A stretch of 35,189 bases of DNA from Acidobacteriota bacterium (GTDB taxonomy: Bacteria > Acidobacteriota > Blastocatellia > Pyrinomonadales > Pyrinomonadaceae). Below the pieces are notes generated by a model. That model was not told where the DNA came from. It ran no database searches and was given only the letters and a program-made list of their open reading frames with translations. Below, piece after piece: positions 5,789 to 30,213 of this stretch. The position numbers and the translations under genes were made by a program. Numbering within the stretch: the first letter of the stretch is position 1; each line of letters opens with the position of its first letter. The stretch is taken from the NCBI GenBank assembly GCA_003222945.1, contig QHXM01000096.1, positions 1-35,189 of the forward strand, given 5' to 3'.

Positions 5789-5908
5789 AAGGATGACGGA
5801 CGAAAAAGTTTTGAGTTATGAGTTATGAGTTAAAGGCTTTCAACTCAAAATTCATAACTCATAACTCATAACTTGCTTTTCCGTCCTTCCCCTTCGTCGT
5901 TCATCCTT
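5789..5908. repeat. Heptamer-armed hairpin, ftsI-murF junction
   Basis: The arms are tandem 7-nt words: GAGTTAT units on the left and ATAACTC units on the right. 5814-5831 pairs perfectly with 5856-5873 (18 bp). Outer pairing continues imperfectly to AAGGATGA (5789-5796) with TCATCCTT (5901-5908). It follows the ftsI stop directly. Confidence 0.85.
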
Positions 5909-7728: not shown

Positions 7729-7824
7729 AAAGCAGAATCCAGAAGTCAGAAGTCAGAATGAAAAGCTGAAACCGCTTTTTGTTTTCTTCTGAATTCTGGA
7801 TTCTGGATTCTGAATTCTGCTTTT
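7728..7824. repeat. Heptamer-armed hairpin filling the murF-mraY gap
   Basis: The left arm (AAAAGCAG at 7728, then CAGAATC and CAGAAGT units) is complementary to the right arm (GAATTCT and GGATTCT units ending CTGCTTTT at 7817-7824). It begins on the last base of the murF stop and ends 4 nt before the mraY ATG, leaving no room for a normal Shine-Dalgarno sequence. The loop holds a smaller AAAAGC/GCTTTT pairing. Confidence 0.85.
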
Positions 7825-7828
7825 ACTG

Positions 7829-9370
7829 ATGATTTATTGGGTCTTCTACGATTGGCTCTATAACCGCTACGAGGGGAGCGGCTCCTATCTCGTCAAGGCT
7901 CTGAACGTCTTTCAGTACGTCACGTTTCGAACGGCTTATGCCACTGTGACGGCGCTTCTAATCTCTCTGATCTTTGGACGCCGTGTGATTCAGTTGCTCA
8001 GGGGCTTGAACATTGGGCAGCAGATTCGTGAGGAAGGTCCGCAGGCGCACATGGCTAAGCGCGGGACGCCTACGATGGGCGGCTTGCTGGTCATAGGCTC
8101 CGTGATTATCTCAACACTGCTCTGGGCGAAGCTATCAAGCCTCTACGTCTGGATAGTGATGCTCGCAACCTTGCTCTTCGGGACAATCGGCTTTCTGGAC
8201 GATTATCGCAAGATGGCCTTGCAGCGCAGCCTTGGGTTGACCGGCAAGCAGAAGCTTTTAGGCCAGACCTTGATTGCGATTGGAGTCTGGACTGCACTCT
8301 ACTTCACTTCAGTTTCAGTCGGCGCGCCGCCGATGTTCAGAGAGTTGAGAGATGCGTCCGGTCTTGCAACGAAATTGAAGGACGCGCGCGATCCGTTGTC
8401 GGAATACCTGATGTCGCAGCTCTCGCCCGAAACGCAGAAGATGTTGAGAGCTTACGACGGAGCAAGCCCACTGCCCGAAGCGGACCAGAGAAGATTGGTT
8501 GATGAGCTTAACGGACTCTTGCGCGGTCCATCGCTTTACGACGAGCAGCGATTCTCGCAGGTGAGATTATCGGATGAGGCGAAGCGTTTCGTCGCTCTCA
8601 ATCCGAAAGGTGATGATCTGATTCGTTTGAACCGCGTGCTGTTGGAAGAAGCGTACCCGGCTGAGATTGCAAAGAACACAAAGTATTCGTGGAACGTGAA
8701 CATCCCGTTCTTCAAGGCGACTGCGGACCAGAATCCTCTGACGAGCATCAGCTACATTGGACCGTACCTTTATCTGGTCTTCATACTCGTCGTGCTGGTC
8801 GGCTCATCAAACGCAGTGAACCTGACGGACGGGTTGGACGGTTTGGCAATCAGCGTAACCTTCGTTGCGATGGCAGCGCTGACGGCCTTTACTTACATCA
8901 CAAGCGACTTTCGATTCGCTGGTTATCTTGGACTCGTGCATCGCCCCGAAGCGGCGGAGTTGACGGTATTCTGCGGAGCGATGGCCGGAGCGAGCCTTGG
9001 ATTCTTGTGGTACAACGCGCCGCCTGCGGAAGTCTTCATGGGCGATGTTGGAAGTTTAGCAATCGGCGGCGCAATCGGGACAATCGCCGTTTTGACAAAG
9101 CAGGAGTTCATGCTATTGATGGTCGGCGGCGTGTTCGTGCTCGAAATTTTGTCGGTGATGATTCAGGTCTCCGTCTTCAAGTTGACGAAGAATCCGAAGA
9201 CAGGCATCGGGCGACGCATCTTTAAGATGACGCCGCTTCATCATCACTTTGAGATTCAGTGGGAGCCGCGATTCGGGCAGCGAACCGTAGAGCCGAAAGT
9301 CGTCTTCCGCTTTCTAATACTTGCCATCTTGTTTGCGCTCCTGAGTCTTTCGACATTGAAGTTGCGGTGA
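7829..9370 (+). CDS. mraY: Phospho-N-acetylmuramoyl-pentapeptide-transferase MraY with large loop insertion
   Basis: Membrane enzyme that transfers phospho-MurNAc-pentapeptide to undecaprenyl phosphate, giving lipid I. Family motifs: [16 protein letters not shown] (catalytic Asp pair), [27 protein letters not shown] and MTPLHHHFE. It has 513 residues against about 320-390 in most MraYs. The excess lies between the helix ending [11 protein letters not shown] (about residue 165) and the conserved NIPFFK segment (residue 291): some 120 extra hydrophilic residues in what should be the periplasmic loop before the next helix. The insertion does not break the frame, and all catalytic motifs are intact. 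The ATG is 4 nt after a hairpin and has no visible Shine-Dalgarno sequence. Confidence 0.94.
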
Positions 9371-10853: not shown

Positions 10854-12083
10854 ATGGCTAGAAAATTACAAGCAGATAAATGGTTGTTCGCGGCGACTGC
10901 GGGGCTTGCGCTCTTCGGCATCGTCATGGTCTATAGCGCGTCGGCTGTGATGGCCGAAGCCGAGAATGGCAACCAGTATTACTACGTCATTAAGCAGGGC
11001 ATCTGGACCGCAATTGGTTTCGGCGCGATGCTTTCGATGATGCAGTTCGATTATCAACGACTGCGCGACCGCCGTGTAGTTTACGGGCTGCTTGCGTTGA
11101 CAACTATCTTGCTGCTAGGCGTCTTCGCATTCCCGCGAATCAACGGCGCGCACAGGTGGATTAGATTCGCAGGCTTTTCTGTTCAGCCTTCGGAGCTATC
11201 AAAGCTCGCGCTCGCAATCTTTCTGGCCTACCTTCTTGAAAAGCGCGCGGGCGAGGAAGGGTCATTGAAGCGAACCTTTATTCCGTGCATGGCCGTGACG
11301 GCGTTGATGGCCGCGCTCGTTCTGAAAGAGCCTGATTTCGGGACTGGGTTGATGCTCGCTGTGATCTGCATTGTTATGTACTACACGGCGGGCGCGCGTC
11401 TTCTACATCTTGCTATGGCTGCCGCGCCGGGCCTTGCAATCGGAGTCGGAATGCTGCTCTTTGTGCCTTGGCGTCTTCAAAGGCTTGTGACGTTCACAGA
11501 CCCCTGGGCTGATCCGCAGAACAAAGGTTTTCAGGTTGTGCAGTCTCTGATAGCAATCGGTTCGGGTGGGACTAGCGGGCTTGGATTCGCTCAAGGAAAG
11601 CAGAAGATGTTCTTTCTGCCCTTTGCGCATTCCGACTTTATCTTCGCGGTCATAGGTGAAGAGTTGGGACTCTTCGGCGCGTTGATGGTCGTCGCAGTGT
11701 TCGGGTTGCTGTTGTGGCGCGGCCTTCGCGCTGCGCTTCGTGCGCCCGATAGATTCGGGATGCTGCTCGGCATTGGGATAGTGACGGGCATAGTCGTGCA
11801 GGCGCTCTTTAACATAAGCGTTGTGTTGTCGCTACTGCCGACGAAAGGAATTCCGCTGCCGTTCATCTCCTACGGTGGCTCGTCGCTCGTCCCTACATTG
11901 ATTGCAGTCGGGATACTCTTGAACATCTCGCAGCGTTCGGCAAGTGGCGCTGGGACAAGTGAGCAATGGCTGGACGCGGAGACGCGGGGACGCGGCGACG
12001 CGGCGACAGAAAAGCATGACAGCGCAGCCAGTTCTTCCTTTTCTACGCGTCTCCGCGTCCCCGCGTCTCCGCGTCGCGGATAA
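10854..12083 (+). CDS. ftsW: SEDS peptidoglycan glycosyltransferase FtsW
   Basis: 409 residues, about ten membrane helices. SEDS signatures: VMVYSASAVMA, GAHRWIRF, VQPSELSKLALAIFLA, LKEPDFGTGLML, and LPTKGIPLPFISYGGSSL. FtsW polymerises lipid II at the septum together with FtsI. The start is ATG at 10854. The conserved protein ends near NISQRSASG; the remaining 40 or so residues (from GTSEQW to PASPRRG) are polar and are almost entirely encoded by the octamer-armed hairpin at 11972-12080. An insertion of this repeat probably replaced or extended the original C-terminus. murG follows. Confidence 0.94.
   Translation: MARKLQADKWLFAATAGLALFGIVMVYSASAVMAEAENGNQYYYVIKQGIWTAIGFGAMLSMMQFDYQRLRDRRVVYGLLALTTILLLGVFAFPRINGAHRWIRFAGFSVQPSELSKLALAIFLAYLLEKRAGEEGSLKRTFIPCMAVTALMAALVLKEPDFGTGLMLAVICIVMYYTAGARLLHLAMAAAPGLAIGVGMLLFVPWRLQRLVTFTDPWADPQNKGFQVVQSLIAIGSGGTSGLGFAQGKQKMFFLPFAHSDFIFAVIGEELGLFGALMVVAVFGLLLWRGLRAALRAPDRFGMLLGIGIVTGIVVQALFNISVVLSLLPTKGIPLPFISYGGSSLVPTLIAVGILLNISQRSASGAGTSEQWLDAETRGRGDAATEKHDSAASSSFSTRLRVPASPRRG
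11972..12080. repeat. Octamer-armed hairpin inside the 3' end of ftsW
   Basis: Tandem 8-nt words (GACGCGGA, GACGCGGG, GACGCGGC) form the left arm, with the reverse complement on the right. 11973-11995 pairs perfectly with 12053-12075 (23 bp). The whole element is translated as the FtsW tail. A short copy of the word occurs again at about 21997-22009. Confidence 0.88.
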
Positions 12084-12101
12084 CGGCGATGCGTGTTCTG
12101 A

Positions 12102-13010
12102 TTGCTGAAGAACGTAGGAGTTGCGGCGCGTATTCGCGGGCTTCTACTTCTGCCGAAAAGTTTCTTCGAGGCACGAAGAGTGATACGCGAGTTCCGTCCA
12201 GATGTTGTCGTAGGCGCGGGCGGTTACGTTTCCGGTCCTGTTCTGATGACGGCTGCGTTGATGCGAATCCCTACGCTCGTGATGGAGTCGAACGCTCTGC
12301 CGGGTTTCACGAACCGCAGGCTGGCGCGATTTGTTGACAAGGCTGTGGTGACGTTTGAAGCGGCGCTTCCTTACTTTCGAGGCAAGGGAATTGTGACGGG
12401 CAATCCCGTGCGCCGCGAGTTCTTTGACATTCCTGCGAAAGAGCGCGATGCCGCACGCTTTTCGTTGCTCATCTTCGGCGGCTCGCAGGGCGCGCGTGCT
12501 ATCAACGAAGCGGTGATCGCAGCGTTGCCGCAACTTGCGGAGCGACGCGATGTGCTTCGCATCACGCACCAGACGGGCGCGGCGGATTTTGAAAAAGTGA
12601 GCGCGGGCTACAGGGATGCAGGATGGAGCGAGCAAGCGGACGTGAGGCGTTACATTGATAACATGGTTGAGGAGTTTGCGCTCGCGGATTTAATCATCTC
12701 TCGCGCAGGAGCAACGACCACGGCGGAACTCGTCGCGGCGGGCAAGGCGGCAATCATGATTCCGTTTCCGCAAGCTGCTGACGATCACCAGCGAAAGAAC
12801 GCAGAAGCGCTTCGTGCGGCGGGCGCTGCGCGAATGATCCTGCAAAAAGATTTGACAGGCGAACGGCTCGCTAAAGAGATCGCAGCGCTCATCGAAGCGC
12901 CGGATGAGTTGACAAAGATGGAAGAAGCAAGCCGCAAACTCGCGCGCGGCGACGCAGCAGCCGCAGCAGTAAATCTTATTGAGGAGTTGATAGTAGAAAA
13001 ACAAAAGTGA
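12102..13010 (+). CDS. murG: MurG glycosyltransferase, N-terminal block missing and frameshifted
   Basis: MurG transfers GlcNAc from UDP-GlcNAc to lipid I, giving lipid II. The frame from TTG 12102 carries LKNVGVAARIRGLLLLPKSF, FRPDVVVGAGGYVSGP, TLVMESNALPGFTNRRLA, GNPVRREFF, FGGSQGARAINEA, ISRAGATTTAELVAAGKAA and PFPQAADDHQRKNAEAL: the second and third Gly-rich loops and the donor-binding domain. The start expected for MurG, MRVLIA, is encoded at 12089 in a different frame. It is joined directly to the codons for LKNVGV, so about 55 residues, including the GGTGGH loop, are absent. 302 residues remain against about 355-370. Either this copy is inactive or the sequence has an assembly deletion; an essential gene would need a second copy. 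Confidence 0.85.
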   Translation: MLKNVGVAARIRGLLLLPKSFFEARRVIREFRPDVVVGAGGYVSGPVLMTAALMRIPTLVMESNALPGFTNRRLARFVDKAVVTFEAALPYFRGKGIVTGNPVRREFFDIPAKERDAARFSLLIFGGSQGARAINEAVIAALPQLAERRDVLRITHQTGAADFEKVSAGYRDAGWSEQADVRRYIDNMVEEFALADLIISRAGATTTAELVAAGKAAIMIPFPQAADDHQRKNAEALRAAGAARMILQKDLTGERLAKEIAALIEAPDELTKMEEASRKLARGDAAAAAVNLIEELIVEKQK

Positions 13011-14530: not shown

Positions 14531-15598
14531 ATGGTAGTTGACGAAGCGAAAAAAGAGTTAAGCATTGAAGAACGTGACGCTGCGATTGAAGAGATTGCGG
14601 CGCGTCTTGGCGTGCGCGCAGAGCGCGGGCGACGCTTCGCTGAGTTGACTTCTCTTAGAGTCGGCGGAGCGATTGATTGGGTAATCTCGCCCACGACTGA
14701 GGGGCAGGCCGCGCGGGTTGTCTATGAACTGGAAGAGGCTGGCATCCCATGGCGCGCTCTTGGCTCTGGCAGCAATGTGCTGGCGGACGATGCGGACCAT
14801 CATTACGTTGTTGTGAGCTTGAAAGAGTTGAAAGGCGAAGCGCATTTCGATGGCGAGCGCGTGAGTGTGAGCGCTGGCTACTCGCTTCCACGTCTCTGCA
14901 TTGACGCAGGCCGTCGCGGGCTTGCAGGCATTGAAGGCTTAGGCGGGATTCCCGGAACTGTCGGCGGCGCGCTCTGGATGAACGCTGGCGCTTACGGCCA
15001 TGAGATCGGAAACGTGACTGAGACTGTGCGCGTTGCGCGCGGAGGCCGCGTGGTCGAAATTCCCGGAAGCGAAGTGAAATGGGATTACCGTCATACATCA
15101 TTTCGTGAAGGTGAGCTTCTGCTCGGCGCAACATTGCTACTTAGACGTGACGACCCTGAGAAGATCGGCGCGCGTATGCTCGAAGCCAAGAACAAGCGCC
15201 TGGCTACGCAGCCGCACGGAGCGCGAAGCGCCGGATGCTTCTTCAAGAATCCTCCGGGAAGCGAGGTCGGCACAGGCAAGATGATTGACGAGATGGGGAT
15301 GAAAGGCGAGCGGCGGGGCGGCGCGCTCGTCTCGCCCGTCCACGCAAACTTCATCGTCACAGAAGGCGAAGATGCGAAAGCGGAGGACGCGCTTGCGTTG
15401 GCCGAAGAGATTAGAGAGCGCATCAAGCGAGAGAAGGGAATTGAGTTGGAGTACGAAGTAGAGTTGTGGCGCGCTGAAAGTCCAAAAGAGAGTCTTGAGT
15501 CTGGAGTCGAGAGTCTTGAGTCAAAGACTGAAAAAGAATCTGCTTCTGACACCGGACTCCAGACTGAAGACTCCAGACTCCAGACTACGGAAGAATGA
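14531..15598 (+). CDS. murB: UDP-N-acetylenolpyruvoylglucosamine reductase MurB
   Basis: FAD/NADPH reductase that forms UDP-MurNAc. Motifs: SLRVGGAIDW, GSGSNVLADD, GIEGLGGIPGTVGGALWMNA, YRHTSFR, and SAGCFFKNPPG. In the last motif a Cys occupies the place of the catalytic Ser of E. coli MurB (Ser229). The start is ATG 14531 with AGAGGG just upstream. A TTG at 14477 with AGGA six bases upstream is an equally reasonable start and would add 18 residues. The conserved protein ends at about YEVELWRAE; the last roughly 40 residues (rich in E, S, T, Q) are encoded by the heptamer hairpin at 15488-15590. The stop overlaps the ftsQ start as ATGA. Confidence 0.92.
   Translation: MVVDEAKKELSIEERDAAIEEIAARLGVRAERGRRFAELTSLRVGGAIDWVISPTTEGQAARVVYELEEAGIPWRALGSGSNVLADDADHHYVVVSLKELKGEAHFDGERVSVSAGYSLPRLCIDAGRRGLAGIEGLGGIPGTVGGALWMNAGAYGHEIGNVTETVRVARGGRVVEIPGSEVKWDYRHTSFREGELLLGATLLLRRDDPEKIGARMLEAKNKRLATQPHGARSAGCFFKNPPGSEVGTGKMIDEMGMKGERRGGALVSPVHANFIVTEGEDAKAEDALALAEEIRERIKREKGIELEYEVELWRAESPKESLESGVESLESKTEKESASDTGLQTEDSRLQTTEE
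15488..15590. repeat. Heptamer-armed hairpin inside the 3' end of murB
   Basis: The left arm has GAGTCTT, GAGTCTG and GAGTCGA words (15488-15525); the right arm has AGACTCC words (15553-15586). Complementarity is imperfect but extends over most of both arms. It is translated entirely as the MurB tail. The loop again has GAAAAAGAATC followed by a TCTGCTTCTG pyrimidine side. Confidence 0.82.
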
Positions 15599-16563
15599 GA
15601 GAGCAGATCATAACACCAAGAGCAGGGCGTGGCGCTGCGGCTGGCAAAGGGCGCGCGGGCGAGATTGTGCAGCGGCCAGCGAGTCGTGACCGCGGCTCAT
15701 CCTCGTCGCGCGCGAAAGTTAAGGGTTGGCGCAAAGTCCTCGCTTATCTTCCGCTCGCGTCGAAAATCGCGGCTGCTGCGGTCCTCGGTGTTCTGCTCTT
15801 CGCAGGCTACCGCGCGGCGGCATCAGCCTCATTTTTTCAGGCGCGCAATCTGGACGTGAGCGGCGCGGCGCGCACCTCCGCCGATGAAATCAGAGCGGTT
15901 GTAAAAAAAGATGTGGATCAGACGGGAGTCTGGCGCGCAGACCTCGCTGCGATTAGTAGAGATTTGAAGATGCTTCCGTGGGTTCGTGATGCTGTGGTCT
16001 CGCGCGTGTTGCCGGACGGACTTCGCGTGCGCGTAACGGAGCGCGAGCCGCGAGCGATTGATTGGGAGACTCGTGGCATCAGCCGCCGCATAAGCGAAGT
16101 CAACTTAAACGACCTGCGCGATGTGCGAGTGCAACTTACTGGCGACGATTCTCAGATAGAGATTCAACTGGGCAAAGAGGATTTCGGCAACCGATTGAAA
16201 TTCGCTCTTGATGAACTGGACCGCCAGCGCAACACGCCGATTGGTCCTTACATTCTGCACATAAACGTCGCGCAAGGCGTAGAGAAGGGCAATCACGTGA
16301 CGATAGGCGTTAGCCCGGACGCGCCTAAACTCGATGCTGCTGGCAACAACGCCTCCGGCCCCGAAGTCGAGAGCGCACGAGTCGCTGCGCGTGACACAGC
16401 AAAGCCTCCCGCCGAGAGCAGGAAAGCCAAAGAGAAAGAGAAAGTCACGCACAAGGAAGATGAGCAGGTGCGAAAGAAAGATCAGGACAAGAAGGATAAG
16501 AATAAAAAGGAGAAGCCTGCGCCCGAAGCGAAATCGGAAAGCCGACCGCGAAGAGTCGGATGA
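15595..16563 (+). CDS. ftsQ: Cell division protein FtsQ, beta domain apparently shortened
   Basis: 322 residues. Basic cytoplasmic N-terminus (1-50), one transmembrane helix (about 60-80, AAAVLGVLLFAGYRAAAS), POTRA domain (about 82-153, from FQARNLDVSGA to VRVTEREPRAI with LPWVRDAVVSRVLPDGL), then a short remainder (RRISEVNLNDLRDVRVQL, IQLGKEDFGNRLKFALDEL) that matches the second half of the FtsQ beta domain. The part between RAID and ISRRISEV, where other FtsQ proteins have the VDxxG strand and about 50-60 further residues, seems absent, although the frame is intact. The C-terminal 60 residues are a Lys/Glu-rich, probably disordered tail. ATG 15595 overlaps the murB stop; GGAAG precedes it. 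Confidence 0.85.
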   Translation: MREQIITPRAGRGAAAGKGRAGEIVQRPASRDRGSSSSRAKVKGWRKVLAYLPLASKIAAAAVLGVLLFAGYRAAASASFFQARNLDVSGAARTSADEIRAVVKKDVDQTGVWRADLAAISRDLKMLPWVRDAVVSRVLPDGLRVRVTEREPRAIDWETRGISRRISEVNLNDLRDVRVQLTGDDSQIEIQLGKEDFGNRLKFALDELDRQRNTPIGPYILHINVAQGVEKGNHVTIGVSPDAPKLDAAGNNASGPEVESARVAARDTAKPPAESRKAKEKEKVTHKEDEQVRKKDQDKKDKNKKEKPAPEAKSESRPRRVG

Positions 16564-16625
16564 AAGTTTCAAGTTTCAAGTTAAAAGCTCAGGTCTTGGA
16601 ACTTGAAACCTGAAACTTGAAACTC
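16562..16625. repeat. Heptamer-armed hairpin filling the ftsQ-ftsA gap
   Basis: AAGTTTC words (16564-16582) face GAAACTT words (16600-16624). The arms pair for 14 bp without mismatch and then continue with one mismatch. It starts inside the ftsQ stop codon and ends 9 nt before the ftsA ATG. Confidence 0.82.
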
Positions 16626-16634
16626 AAAAGAGTT

Positions 16635-19058
16635 ATGGCAAAGCGCGCGTCACATACAGTTGGTCTGGACATAGGCACGAGCAAGGTGACGTGTATCGTC
16701 GGCGAGCCGGGCGAGGGCGGGTTGCTGGATATCGTAGGCATTGGCGAGGCTGAGGCGCGAGGGCTTCGCAAGGGCGTCATCGTTAATCCTGACGCAGCGG
16801 TCGAGGCGATTAAGCGTGCTGTGGAAGATGCAGAACGAATGAGCGGGCTTGAGGCCGAAGATGTGACGATCAATCTGGCAGGCTCGCACATCATGGGATT
16901 TAACGGTCAGGCGATTGTGGCCGTTTCTGGACGCGACCGAGAGATAACGCCTGATGATGTGCGGCGCGCGATTGATTCCGCCTGCGCGATTCAACTTCCG
17001 GCGGGGCGCGAGATCGTTGACCGCTTGCCGCAGGAGTTCATCGTTGACGACCAGGATGGAATCAACGATCCGGTTGGAATGATAGGCGCGCGACTCGCCG
17101 TAAAGGTCCACATCGTGACGAGTCCTGTGACTGCAAGGCAGAACGCCATCAATGCTGTGAATCGTTCGGGGCTGGTCGTCGCGGACATGGTGCTTGAACA
17201 GTTGGCCGCAGCCGAAGCATCTTTGACGGATGATGACAAGGAGTTCGGCGCGGCGCTCGTTGACATAGGCGCGGAGACTACGGGACTTGTCATATACCAG
17301 CGCGGCGCTGTGCAACATACGGCTGTCTTCGCGCTCGGCGGCTCGCACTTTACCAATGACATTGCCTTCGGGCTTCGCACGCCGATTCCCGAAGCAGAGA
17401 AGATCAAGCGCACTGTGGGTTGCGCGTCCAGCGCATCTTTGAACGATATGGAACGCGGCGAGCTTGTCGAAGTTCCTTCAGTGGGGGGACGCGCTCCGCG
17501 TCAACTCTCGCGCCAGATTCTCTGCGACATCCTTCAACCGCGCGCCGAAGAAGTCTTGATGCAGGTCGCGGATGAGATAAGGGAATCGGGCTGGGAGCGC
17601 CAGTTGTCCAGCGGAGTAGTCCTAACGGGCGGCGGAGCGCTTCTTAGTGGAATGCCTGAAATCGCGGAGCAAGTTTTTGACGCTCCTGTCAGAATCGGCT
17701 ACCCGGAGAGAGATCGTTTTGGCGGGCTTATTGAAGATATACAAAGCCCCGTGTGGGCTGCGGCAGCCGGATTAGCCCTTGTTACGCAGCGCGCTCAAGC
17801 GTCAGATATGCGCGGCGGAGCAGGAAAAAGAGGCTCTGCGGGCAAGCTCACGCATTTTGTTTCCAAGTTTCGGGATCGTTTTAGTGAGAGAGGAATACGA
17901 GTGATGACAACGGAAGGCCGTCAACCGGGCAACGGCATTAATATTTTCATAGATGACGACCCACCAATCACCGGCGCGCGAATAAAAGTAATCGGCGTCG
18001 GAGGCGGAGGCGGCAACGCCGTCAACCGCATGATCGAATCTGGCATAGAGGGCATAGAGTTCCTCGTAGCCAATACAGACCTGCAAGCCTTGAAGCGCTC
18101 ACATGCGCCTATCAAGATTCAACTCGGCGGCAAGCTCACTAAGGGCTTGGGCGCAGGCGCAGACCCTAACATAGGGCGCAACGCTGCGCTCGAAGATACA
18201 GAGAAGATAATAGAAGTCCTGGAAGGCGCGGACATGGTCTTCGTCACTACGGGCCTGGGTGGCGGCACAGGAACGGGCGCAGCTCCTATCATCGCTTCTT
18301 TGGCGACGGAGTTGAACGCGCTGACTGTGGCGGTCGTCACTAAACCTTTTCACTTTGAAGGCCGACGGCGCATGATGCAGGCTGACCAAGGCTTAAGAGA
18401 ACTGCGCGAGTGCGTTGACACCGTGATTACGATTCCGAACGAGCGTCTTCTACACACTGTTGAGCGCAACGTCTCGCTCTCGGACTCTTTCAAGGTCGCG
18501 GACGACGTTCTTCGTCAAGCTGTTCAGGGCATCTCGGATTTGATTACAGTGCCCGGACTCATCAATCTTGATTTCGCTGACGTGAAAGCGATCATGCAGG
18601 GAATGGGTCTGGCATTGATGGGCGCTGGACGCGCATCGGGCGAGCATCGAGCTATGGAAGCGACGCAACAGGCTATCTCAAGCCCGCTGCTTGAAGAAGC
18701 GACCATACAGGGCGCGAAAGGTGTTCTAATCAACATCACGGGCGGAACTGATCTTACGCTCTACGAAGTCAACGAAGCATCTTCGATCATACGCGAGGCC
18801 GCAGACGAAGATGCCAACATAATCTTCGGCGCGGTGATTGACGAGACGATGCACGACGAGATGAAGATTACAGTCATCGCCACAGGCTTTGACAAAGATA
18901 TGTCAGACGTGGGCACTACAGCCGCGAGTGCCGCGATGCCTTCCGCCCAGCCGCGCTACACTCAAACGCCCGGCGACGATCTGCAACGACCCACAGTCAA
19001 TCCGGGTCGCACAGACGATCTTGATGTGCCGACATTTATTCGCAAGAAAGCAGACTGA
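16635..19058 (+). CDS. ftsA-ftsZ: FtsA-FtsZ encoded as a single continuous reading frame
   Basis: 807 residues. Residues 1-423 are a complete FtsA: actin-like phosphate loop [18 protein letters not shown], 1C domain, [27 protein letters not shown], and a C-terminal amphipathic helix ([16 protein letters not shown]) of the membrane-targeting type. Residue 424 is the ATG-encoded Met of a complete 384-residue Fts[28 protein letters not shown] tubulin signature, T7-loop [11 protein letters not shown], and C-terminal peptide [12 protein letters not shown], which binds FtsA. No stop separates them. AGAGAGGAA at 17887-17895 followed by GTG (17901) and ATG (17904) would allow separate FtsZ initiation. 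The ATG at 16635 is preferred over TTG 16617. A one-base change near 17886-17900 would create the usual TGA/ATG overlap, so sequence error must be excluded. Confidence 0.9.
17887..17906 (+). promoter_or_regulatory. ftsZ: Internal ribosome-binding site and start for FtsZ
   Basis: AGAGAGGAA (17887-17895) lies 5 nt before GTG 17901 and 8 nt before ATG 17904, good Shine-Dalgarno spacing. It lies in frame inside the fused gene at the exact FtsA/FtsZ boundary. This suggests independent FtsZ synthesis in addition to, or instead of, the fusion. Confidence 0.7.
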
Positions 19059-19160
19059 AGGAAGGCAAAAGGAAAAAGGTAAAAGGCAAAAGGTAAGACG
19101 AAGAGAGCAAGTTTTTCTTCTCCACCTTTACCTTTTGCCTTTTACCTTTTTCCTTCTTTA
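19058..19160. repeat. Heptamer-armed hairpin after ftsZ, possible terminator
   Basis: AGGCAAA, AGGTAAA and AGGAAAA words form the left arm. 19069-19096 pairs perfectly with 19128-19155 (28 bp). It follows the ftsZ stop and ends in CTTTA, so it could end the dcw transcript, but the U-tract is poor. The 194 bp on to the next gene show no other gene; GGTCGCGC (19260-19267) and GCGCGACC (19300-19307) are a minor inverted repeat. Confidence 0.85.
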
Positions 19161-28471: not shown

Positions 28472-28813
28472 ATGGGCACAATCGCACAGGCCGAACTCTA
28501 TCGTTTAATCGCGCAGGCGCAAGAGCGCGGCGAGCGCGTCGCCGTAGCCACAGTCGCGCACACGCGCGGCTCTACTCCGCAGCGCAGGGGCGCTAAAATG
28601 CTCTTCTTTGAAAACGGTGAGGTGGCTGGAACTGTCGGCGGCGGCTGCATAGAGGCTGAAGTCTGGGCCGAAGCGCGCGCTGCTTTGCGCAACGGCACTT
28701 CCGCTCTTCATCACTTTCAATTGACAGCAGACGAAGCAAGCGAAGAGGGGATGGTCTGCGGCGGCACGATGGAGATTTTTATTGATGTGTGGAAAAGCAG
28801 GGAGGAGGGATGA
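28472..28813 (+). CDS. XdhC/CoxI-family protein, N-terminal domain only
   Basis: 113 residues from ATG 28472. Matches the XdhC_CoxI domain: VATVAHTRGSTPQRRGAKML, GEVAGTVGGGCIEAEVWAEA, GMVCGGTMEIFID. The GGGCxEA and CGG motifs are the conserved cysteine sites of XdhC-type factors, which help sulfurate and insert the molybdenum cofactor into xanthine dehydrogenase or CO dehydrogenase-like hydroxylases. No Rossmann domain is present; a longer relative lies at 29284. An upstream GTG at 28430 is open but lacks a ribosome site. The 3' end runs into a 22-bp hairpin. No molybdenum hydroxylase gene is in the window. Confidence 0.85.
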   Translation: MGTIAQAELYRLIAQAQERGERVAVATVAHTRGSTPQRRGAKMLFFENGEVAGTVGGGCIEAEVWAEARAALRNGTSALHHFQLTADEASEEGMVCGGTMEIFIDVWKSREEG

Positions 28814-28895
28814 GGGCGGCAGCGATGAAGAAAAGAAAGAACGAAAGCAATTTCTGTTTTTCCTTCATCGCTGCCGCCCTCATCCTTGCTCTTGG
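28796..28895. repeat. Long perfect hairpin across the end of the short xdhC gene
   Basis: 28809-28830 pairs perfectly with 28863-28884 (22 bp; arm begins GATGAGGGCGGC). Imperfect pairing extends on both sides. The loop has the AAAAG / TTTTTC layout of the heptamer hairpins, and GGAAAAGCAG stands at the left edge, but the arms themselves are not clearly periodic. It could act as a terminator or RNA-stabilising stem for the upstream gene. Confidence 0.85.
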
Positions 28896-30117: not shown

Positions 30118-30213
30118 AAAGATTTCGGATTTCGGAATGCGGATTGCGGATTGGAAAAGCAAGAGCTTCTTCTTAAATCCGCAATCCGCATTCCGAAATC
30201 CGCATTGAGAAAG
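30116..30213. repeat. Heptamer-armed hairpin between xdhC and MFS gene
   Basis: GCGGATT/TCGGATT words; 30127-30152 pairs perfectly with 30176-30201 (26 bp). The loop contains GGAAAAGCAAGAGCTTCTTCTT. The words are the same as at 10755-10845. It fills the gap from the xdhC stop to the ATG of the MFS gene. Confidence 0.92.

What the first reader, a model, noticed from the sequence alone, without database searches (positions are those of the whole stretch)
12081..12140. murG lacks the GGTGGH block: apparent ~55-residue deletion with frameshift
Seen: ATG CGT GTT CTG ATT GC at 12089 encodes MRVLI(A), the usual MurG beginning, and after that point the sequence continues in another frame with LKNVGVAARIRGLL, which belongs about 55 residues further into MurG. 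The first Gly-rich loop is gone. A GCTG at the junction is compatible with a microhomology deletion. Known: MurG is essential for lipid II, and the lost loop contributes to the active site. The rest of the gene has no decay, so the event is recent or artefactual; the neighbouring 23-bp stem could also have caused an assembly or sequencing deletion.
Basis: partly seen in the sequence, partly recalled or inferred. Interest (0 to 1): 0.6.

Follow-up and report, generated by a model that had tools for sequence, protein, structure and literature searches.

The report
murG gap from faulty genome assembly
The cell-wall gene murG in this draft genome lacks 167 letters near its start, but at least four other places in the same draft, including the neighbouring division genes, lack pieces of nearly the same size, so this is most likely an assembly error and not biology.

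Summary
The start codon at 12089 encodes MRVLIA, and the frame then jumps to LKNVG at 12105. In 90 of 95 relatives where the distance could be measured, those points lie 61 codons apart, so 167 bp are missing, including the GGTGGH loop, and the frame breaks. No second murG or detached N-terminus exists in the assembly. The deletion is not alone. ftsQ lacks 177 bp in frame (junction ~16059/16060). The ftsA-ftsZ junction (~17885) lacks about 135 bp, including the ftsA stop, which creates a false 813-aa FtsA-FtsZ fusion. Two genes on other contigs, an APC permease and an amidohydrolase, lack about 191 and 160-176 bp with frameshifts. All five are confined to this genome. The reverse test found no frame-breaking lesion in relatives (0 of 97). 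Five similar-sized losses without other decay, three in essential division and wall genes, point to mis-joins in a fragmented metagenome assembly. The upstream stem is probably not the cause: the other four junctions have no hairpin within 400 bp. Verdict: real in the letters, almost certainly not in the organism.

The parts
10854..12083 (+). ftsW, intact domain; the last ~45 codons are read through the hairpin element
   Evidence: Pfam FTSW_RODA_SPOVE, profile 3-354 of 356
11973..12075 (.). inverted repeat, 30-nt arms of a GACGCGG(A/G) octamer repeat, 43-nt loop
   Evidence: the repeat finder; related octamer arms elsewhere in the genome
12089..12104 (+). surviving 5' end of murG (MRVLIA...)
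12104..12105 (+). deletion junction 1: 167 bp missing from murG, frame broken (exact breakpoint ambiguous within a few bases)
   Evidence: distance to the homologous Leu codon in 90 of 95 relatives
12105..13010 (+). rest of murG, 301 codons, no decay
   Evidence: 50-76% identity to relatives; NCBIfam TIGR01133 profile 68-353 of 353; PDB 1f0k from residue 67
16059..16060 (+). deletion junction 2: 177 bp (59 codons) missing in frame from ftsQ (15595-16563)
   Evidence: 13 codons between conserved blocks where four family relatives have 72 and one more distant has 75
17885..17886 (+). deletion junction 3: about 135 bp (127-151) missing, removing the ftsA stop and the ftsA-ftsZ intergenic region, so ftsA and ftsZ read as one 813-aa frame (16617-19058)
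   Evidence: 54 nt between RF and INIFIDD where seven relatives have 181-205 nt

Best explanation
The missing part of murG is an artefact of the assembly. In this fragmented metagenome-assembled genome (325 contigs), pieces were joined across short unsequenced stretches of roughly 135-190 bp without the missing bases being filled in. The join at 12104/12105 dropped 167 bp of an otherwise normal murG, including the first glycine-rich loop; the organism itself very probably has an intact gene. Shown: the missing bases, their absence elsewhere in the assembly, and four further lesions of similar size found only in this assembly. Inferred: that the cause is technical, and that it is a join (scaffold or contig merging) and not a library chimaera.
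For: 167 bp missing with no other decay in the gene. Four further lesions: ftsQ 177 bp in frame; ftsA-ftsZ about 135 bp removing a stop codon; APC permease at C149:~1950, 191 bp, frameshift; amidohydrolase at C300:~5575, 161-176 bp, frameshift. Close orthologues in relatives are full length in one frame: the APC permease in at least 7 genomes, the amidohydrolase in G010, G002, G007 and G024. The same detector, run with this genome's frames against relatives' DNA, found 0 frame-breaking lesions in 97 frames, and it reported no small frameshifts in this genome, so this is neither base-level error nor pseudogene decay. Detectable size was open upward from 60 bp, yet all five fall between about 135 and 191 bp. 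Three of five hit indispensable genes or gene borders, with no respect for reading frame. The assembly holds a 20-N placeholder (C187:2804-2823), consistent with a scaffolding step. No other murG and no detached N-terminus is present.
Against: No reads, coverage or assembly log were available, so the technical origin is inferred. No same-species genome was found for comparison; the best relatives are about 74% identical in protein. A join without overlap or Ns is unusual for assemblers working on k-mer graphs. The 20-N run could be a mask and not a scaffold gap. In most of the genome only genes shared with the sampled part of one relative were tested (98 reference frames, 80 with good matches).
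Confidence: 0.88

Rival explanations
1. A genuine, recent microhomology-mediated deletion in the sampled population: murG is broken in (some of) the cells and the MAG captured the deleted variant.
For: The junction GCTG is compatible with a short microhomology, and the rest of the gene is undecayed, as expected of a very recent event.
Against: MurG makes lipid II and no second copy is present. The rest of the wall and division cluster is kept. Four more deletions of nearly equal size, including ftsQ and the ftsA stop, would have to be recent and tolerated too.
Confidence: 0.05
2. A library artefact at the molecule level (PCR or amplification template switching deleting ~150 bp, fixed in the contig because coverage was low).
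For: It would give short-overlap junctions and hit any gene regardless of function; the MAG is fragmented and 89.8% complete.
Against: Template-switch deletions should vary widely in size, whereas the five seen lie within about 135-191 bp.
Confidence: 0.06
3. The upstream 30-nt-arm hairpin caused a local deletion, in vivo or during sequencing.
For: The hairpin ends 30 bp before the junction. The one other relative with such a hairpin at this spot, G015, also has a broken murG, though ~600 bp further in and missing ~79 bp.
Against: The hairpin itself is retained, and the other four junctions have no inverted repeat within 400 bp.
Confidence: 0.01

Closest known systems
MurG (TIGR01133; PDB 1F0K/1NLM, 3S2U), GT-B lipid II synthase of the dcw cluster
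   Same: Gene order ftsW-murG-murC, 50-76% identity to relatives over 301 residues, complete C-terminal UDP-GlcNAc domain; passes the NCBIfam cut-off (265 vs 250 bits) even when truncated.
   Different: The first ~56 residues after MRVLIA, with the first glycine-rich loop of the lipid I-binding domain, are absent and the frame is broken.
Local misassembly in short-read metagenome assemblies (misjoins and error deletions; discussed in metaMIC, PMC9661791)
   Same: Small sequence losses at joins with intact flanks, scattered without respect for function.
   Different: The usual diagnostic signals, insert distance and coverage of reads, could not be examined here; the diagnosis rests on comparison with relatives.

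Membership tests
MurG (functional) | C-terminal GT28 domain with UDP-GlcNAc site | tested here: met
   Pfam PF04101 positions 2-158 of 166, E 8.6e-45
MurG (functional) | N-terminal domain with first glycine-rich loop (GGTGGH) | tested here: not met
   PF03033 matched only from position 66 of 139; TIGR01133 from 68 of 353
MurG (functional) | One uninterrupted reading frame from the start codon after ftsW | tested here: not met
   Frame from ATG 12089 leaves murG after six codons and meets stops; murG continues in another frame
Assembly mis-join | Recurs in unrelated loci of the same assembly, not in relatives | tested here: met
   Five lesions in this genome; reverse test 0 of 97
Assembly mis-join | Reads disagree with the contig at the junction (insert size, coverage) | not testable with these tools
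   No reads available
FtsA-FtsZ natural fusion (considered for 16617-19058) | Fusion shared by relatives, with the stop and intergenic region naturally absent | tested here: not met
   All seven relatives measured have 181-205 nt between the two anchors, with ftsA closed by a stop in those read; the window lacks ~135 nt there

The most novel reading that the evidence does not exclude
The organism really carries several recent ~135-190-bp deletions in essential wall and division genes (murG, ftsQ, the ftsA-ftsZ border) and lives with them, for example through an unsampled second murG or a wall-less state.
Probability: 0.03. Interest if true: 0.85.

Novelty: not a real feature. Interest (0 to 1): 0.1.

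Why it matters
As biology, little. As a warning, it is useful: the truncated murG still passes the curated MurG cut-off and the ftsA-ftsZ lesion yields a convincing 813-aa 'FtsA-FtsZ fusion', so automatic annotation would report an intact murG and a novel fusion protein. Checking neighbouring genes for lesions of similar size is a cheap way to recognise such artefacts in metagenome-assembled genomes.

Tried and rejected
Second murG or split MurG: searched with two Pfam families and with a relative's N-terminus; only other glycosyltransferases and sub-significant hits. Genus-wide loss of murG: the only same-genus genome (82% complete, 830 contigs) also lacks the ftsW and murC orthologues, so the whole cluster is simply missing there and it says nothing. 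Hairpin as cause: no hairpin at the other junctions. Missing murF in the cluster: no murF stands between murE and mraY in the relatives compared either, so not a lesion. Long MraY (513 aa): the ~120-aa insertion is also present in G007, so natural. In-HSP gaps of 60-93 bp in FtsA, ValS and two other proteins were seen against single references and are not counted as lesions. Paired-read merging on a 10-bp overlap does not fit the murG junction by eye.

Full report
What was claimed.

What is there. The claim is right. The frame from 12089 reads MRVLIA and then leaves MurG. The frame from 12105 reads LKNVGVAARIRGLL... without a stop to 13010. Full-length murG genes were collected from whole genomes of relatives and from public genome contigs, mostly Pyrinomonadaceae MAGs. 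In 90 of 95 measurable cases the homologous leucine is the 62nd codon, 183 bp after the start; the window has 16 bp. So 167 bp are missing, which is not a multiple of three. The loop is present in every full-length relative read; one relative had a divergent start and two ran off their contigs. The remaining protein is 50-76% identical to relatives, passes the NCBIfam MurG cut-off although it starts at profile position 68, and matches E. coli MurG (1f0k) from residue 67. MurG transfers GlcNAc to lipid I; its N-terminal domain binds lipid I, and glycine-rich loops are proposed to stabilise the phosphates of lipid I and UDP-GlcNAc (PMC4790310). A protein without this part is not expected to work (inference).

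Is there another murG? The assembly is a MAG of 4.74 Mb in 325 contigs, 89.8% complete. Only one MurG C-terminal domain scores strongly; the other GT28 matches are weak and belong to other glycosyltransferases. A relative's N-terminal 66 residues find nothing significant. The one same-genus genome lacks the ftsW and murC orthologues too, so it is uninformative.

The deletion is not alone. Checking the neighbours changed the picture. Pfam showed the ORF at 16617-19058 as FtsA and FtsZ in one 813-aa frame. In seven relatives the end of ftsA (…RF) and the FtsZ motif INIFIDD are separated by 181-205 nt; in those read in full there is an ftsA stop codon between them, and in the closer ones a promoter-like TTGACAAGTTGTTGTATGCT. 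In the window they are 54 nt apart, about 135 nt short (127-151), and the ftsA stop is gone. FtsQ (15595-16563) has 13 residues between two conserved blocks where four family relatives have 72 and a more distant one 75: 177 bp missing, this time in frame. Three lesions therefore lie within 6 kb.

Outside the window, 893 kb of this genome and 789 kb of a clean relative (G003) were compared with a script that looks for collinear matches separated by missing reference sequence. It found two more lesions: an APC permease on contig C149 near 1950 (191 bp) and an amidohydrolase on C300 near 5575 (about 176 bp by the local estimate, 161 by the overall one), both frame-breaking. Both genes are full length in a single frame in close orthologues of several relatives and split only in this genome. 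In the opposite direction, this genome's frames against the relatives' DNA, 0 of 97 showed such a lesion, and no small frameshifts were reported in this genome. A separate scan for missing ends, with 80 G003 frames, again flagged these five loci; the other entries look like over-extended reference frames or variable ends (judged by eye).

Interpretation. Five losses of about 135-191 bp, three in or between indispensable wall and division genes, indifferent to frame, with flawless flanks and confined to one fragmented MAG, are not what selection or gene decay produces. A technical cause explains all of them at once. The similar size suggests unfilled short gaps bounded by the fragment length of a paired-end library; a 20-N placeholder on C187 (2804-2823) is consistent with a scaffolding step. 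That the loss arose when contigs were joined, not in the library, is inference.

The stem. The inverted repeat at 11973-12075 (30-nt arms) lies inside the 3' end of the ftsW frame. It belongs to a large population of hairpins with short tandem-repeat arms in this genome: 120 with arms of at least 20 nt in 893 kb, 77 of them with a period of 7 bp. It is retained, and none of the other four junctions has an inverted repeat within 400 bp, so it is not needed to explain the deletion. One coincidence is left open: G015 also has a hairpin of this type before murG and also has a damaged murG, with about 79 bp missing some 600 bp further into the gene.

Verdict. Observation confirmed. Interpretation partly supported, with the 'artefact' reading strongly preferred and the hairpin reading disfavoured. 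Not a real feature of the organism, at about 0.9 confidence; reads across the junction would settle it.

Noticed in passing
16617-19058: ftsA and ftsZ read as one 813-aa frame; explained by a ~135-bp loss at ~17885 that removes the ftsA stop, so a false fusion.
   Followed up: yes
15595-16563: ftsQ lacks 59 codons in frame relative to relatives.
   Followed up: yes
5806-5874, 7733-7812, 11973-12075, 19069-19155, 28808-28885, 30126-30202: Hairpins whose arms are mostly short tandem repeats (usually 7-bp period), mostly between genes; about 134 per Mb in the sampled genome against about 43 per Mb in G003, with different repeat units at the same ftsW-murG border in several relatives. Function and spread unexplained.
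   Followed up: partly
L155 ~10240 (G015 murG): A relative's murG has another frame-breaking loss of about 79 bp, in the C-terminal domain, also downstream of an octamer hairpin.
   Followed up: partly
7829-9370: MraY is 513 aa with a ~120-aa insertion in its middle, shared with G007 but absent from other relatives compared.
   Followed up: no
L174 2804-2823 (contig C187): A run of exactly 20 Ns just after a HicA-like reading frame (identified from memory), probably a scaffold placeholder.
   Followed up: partly
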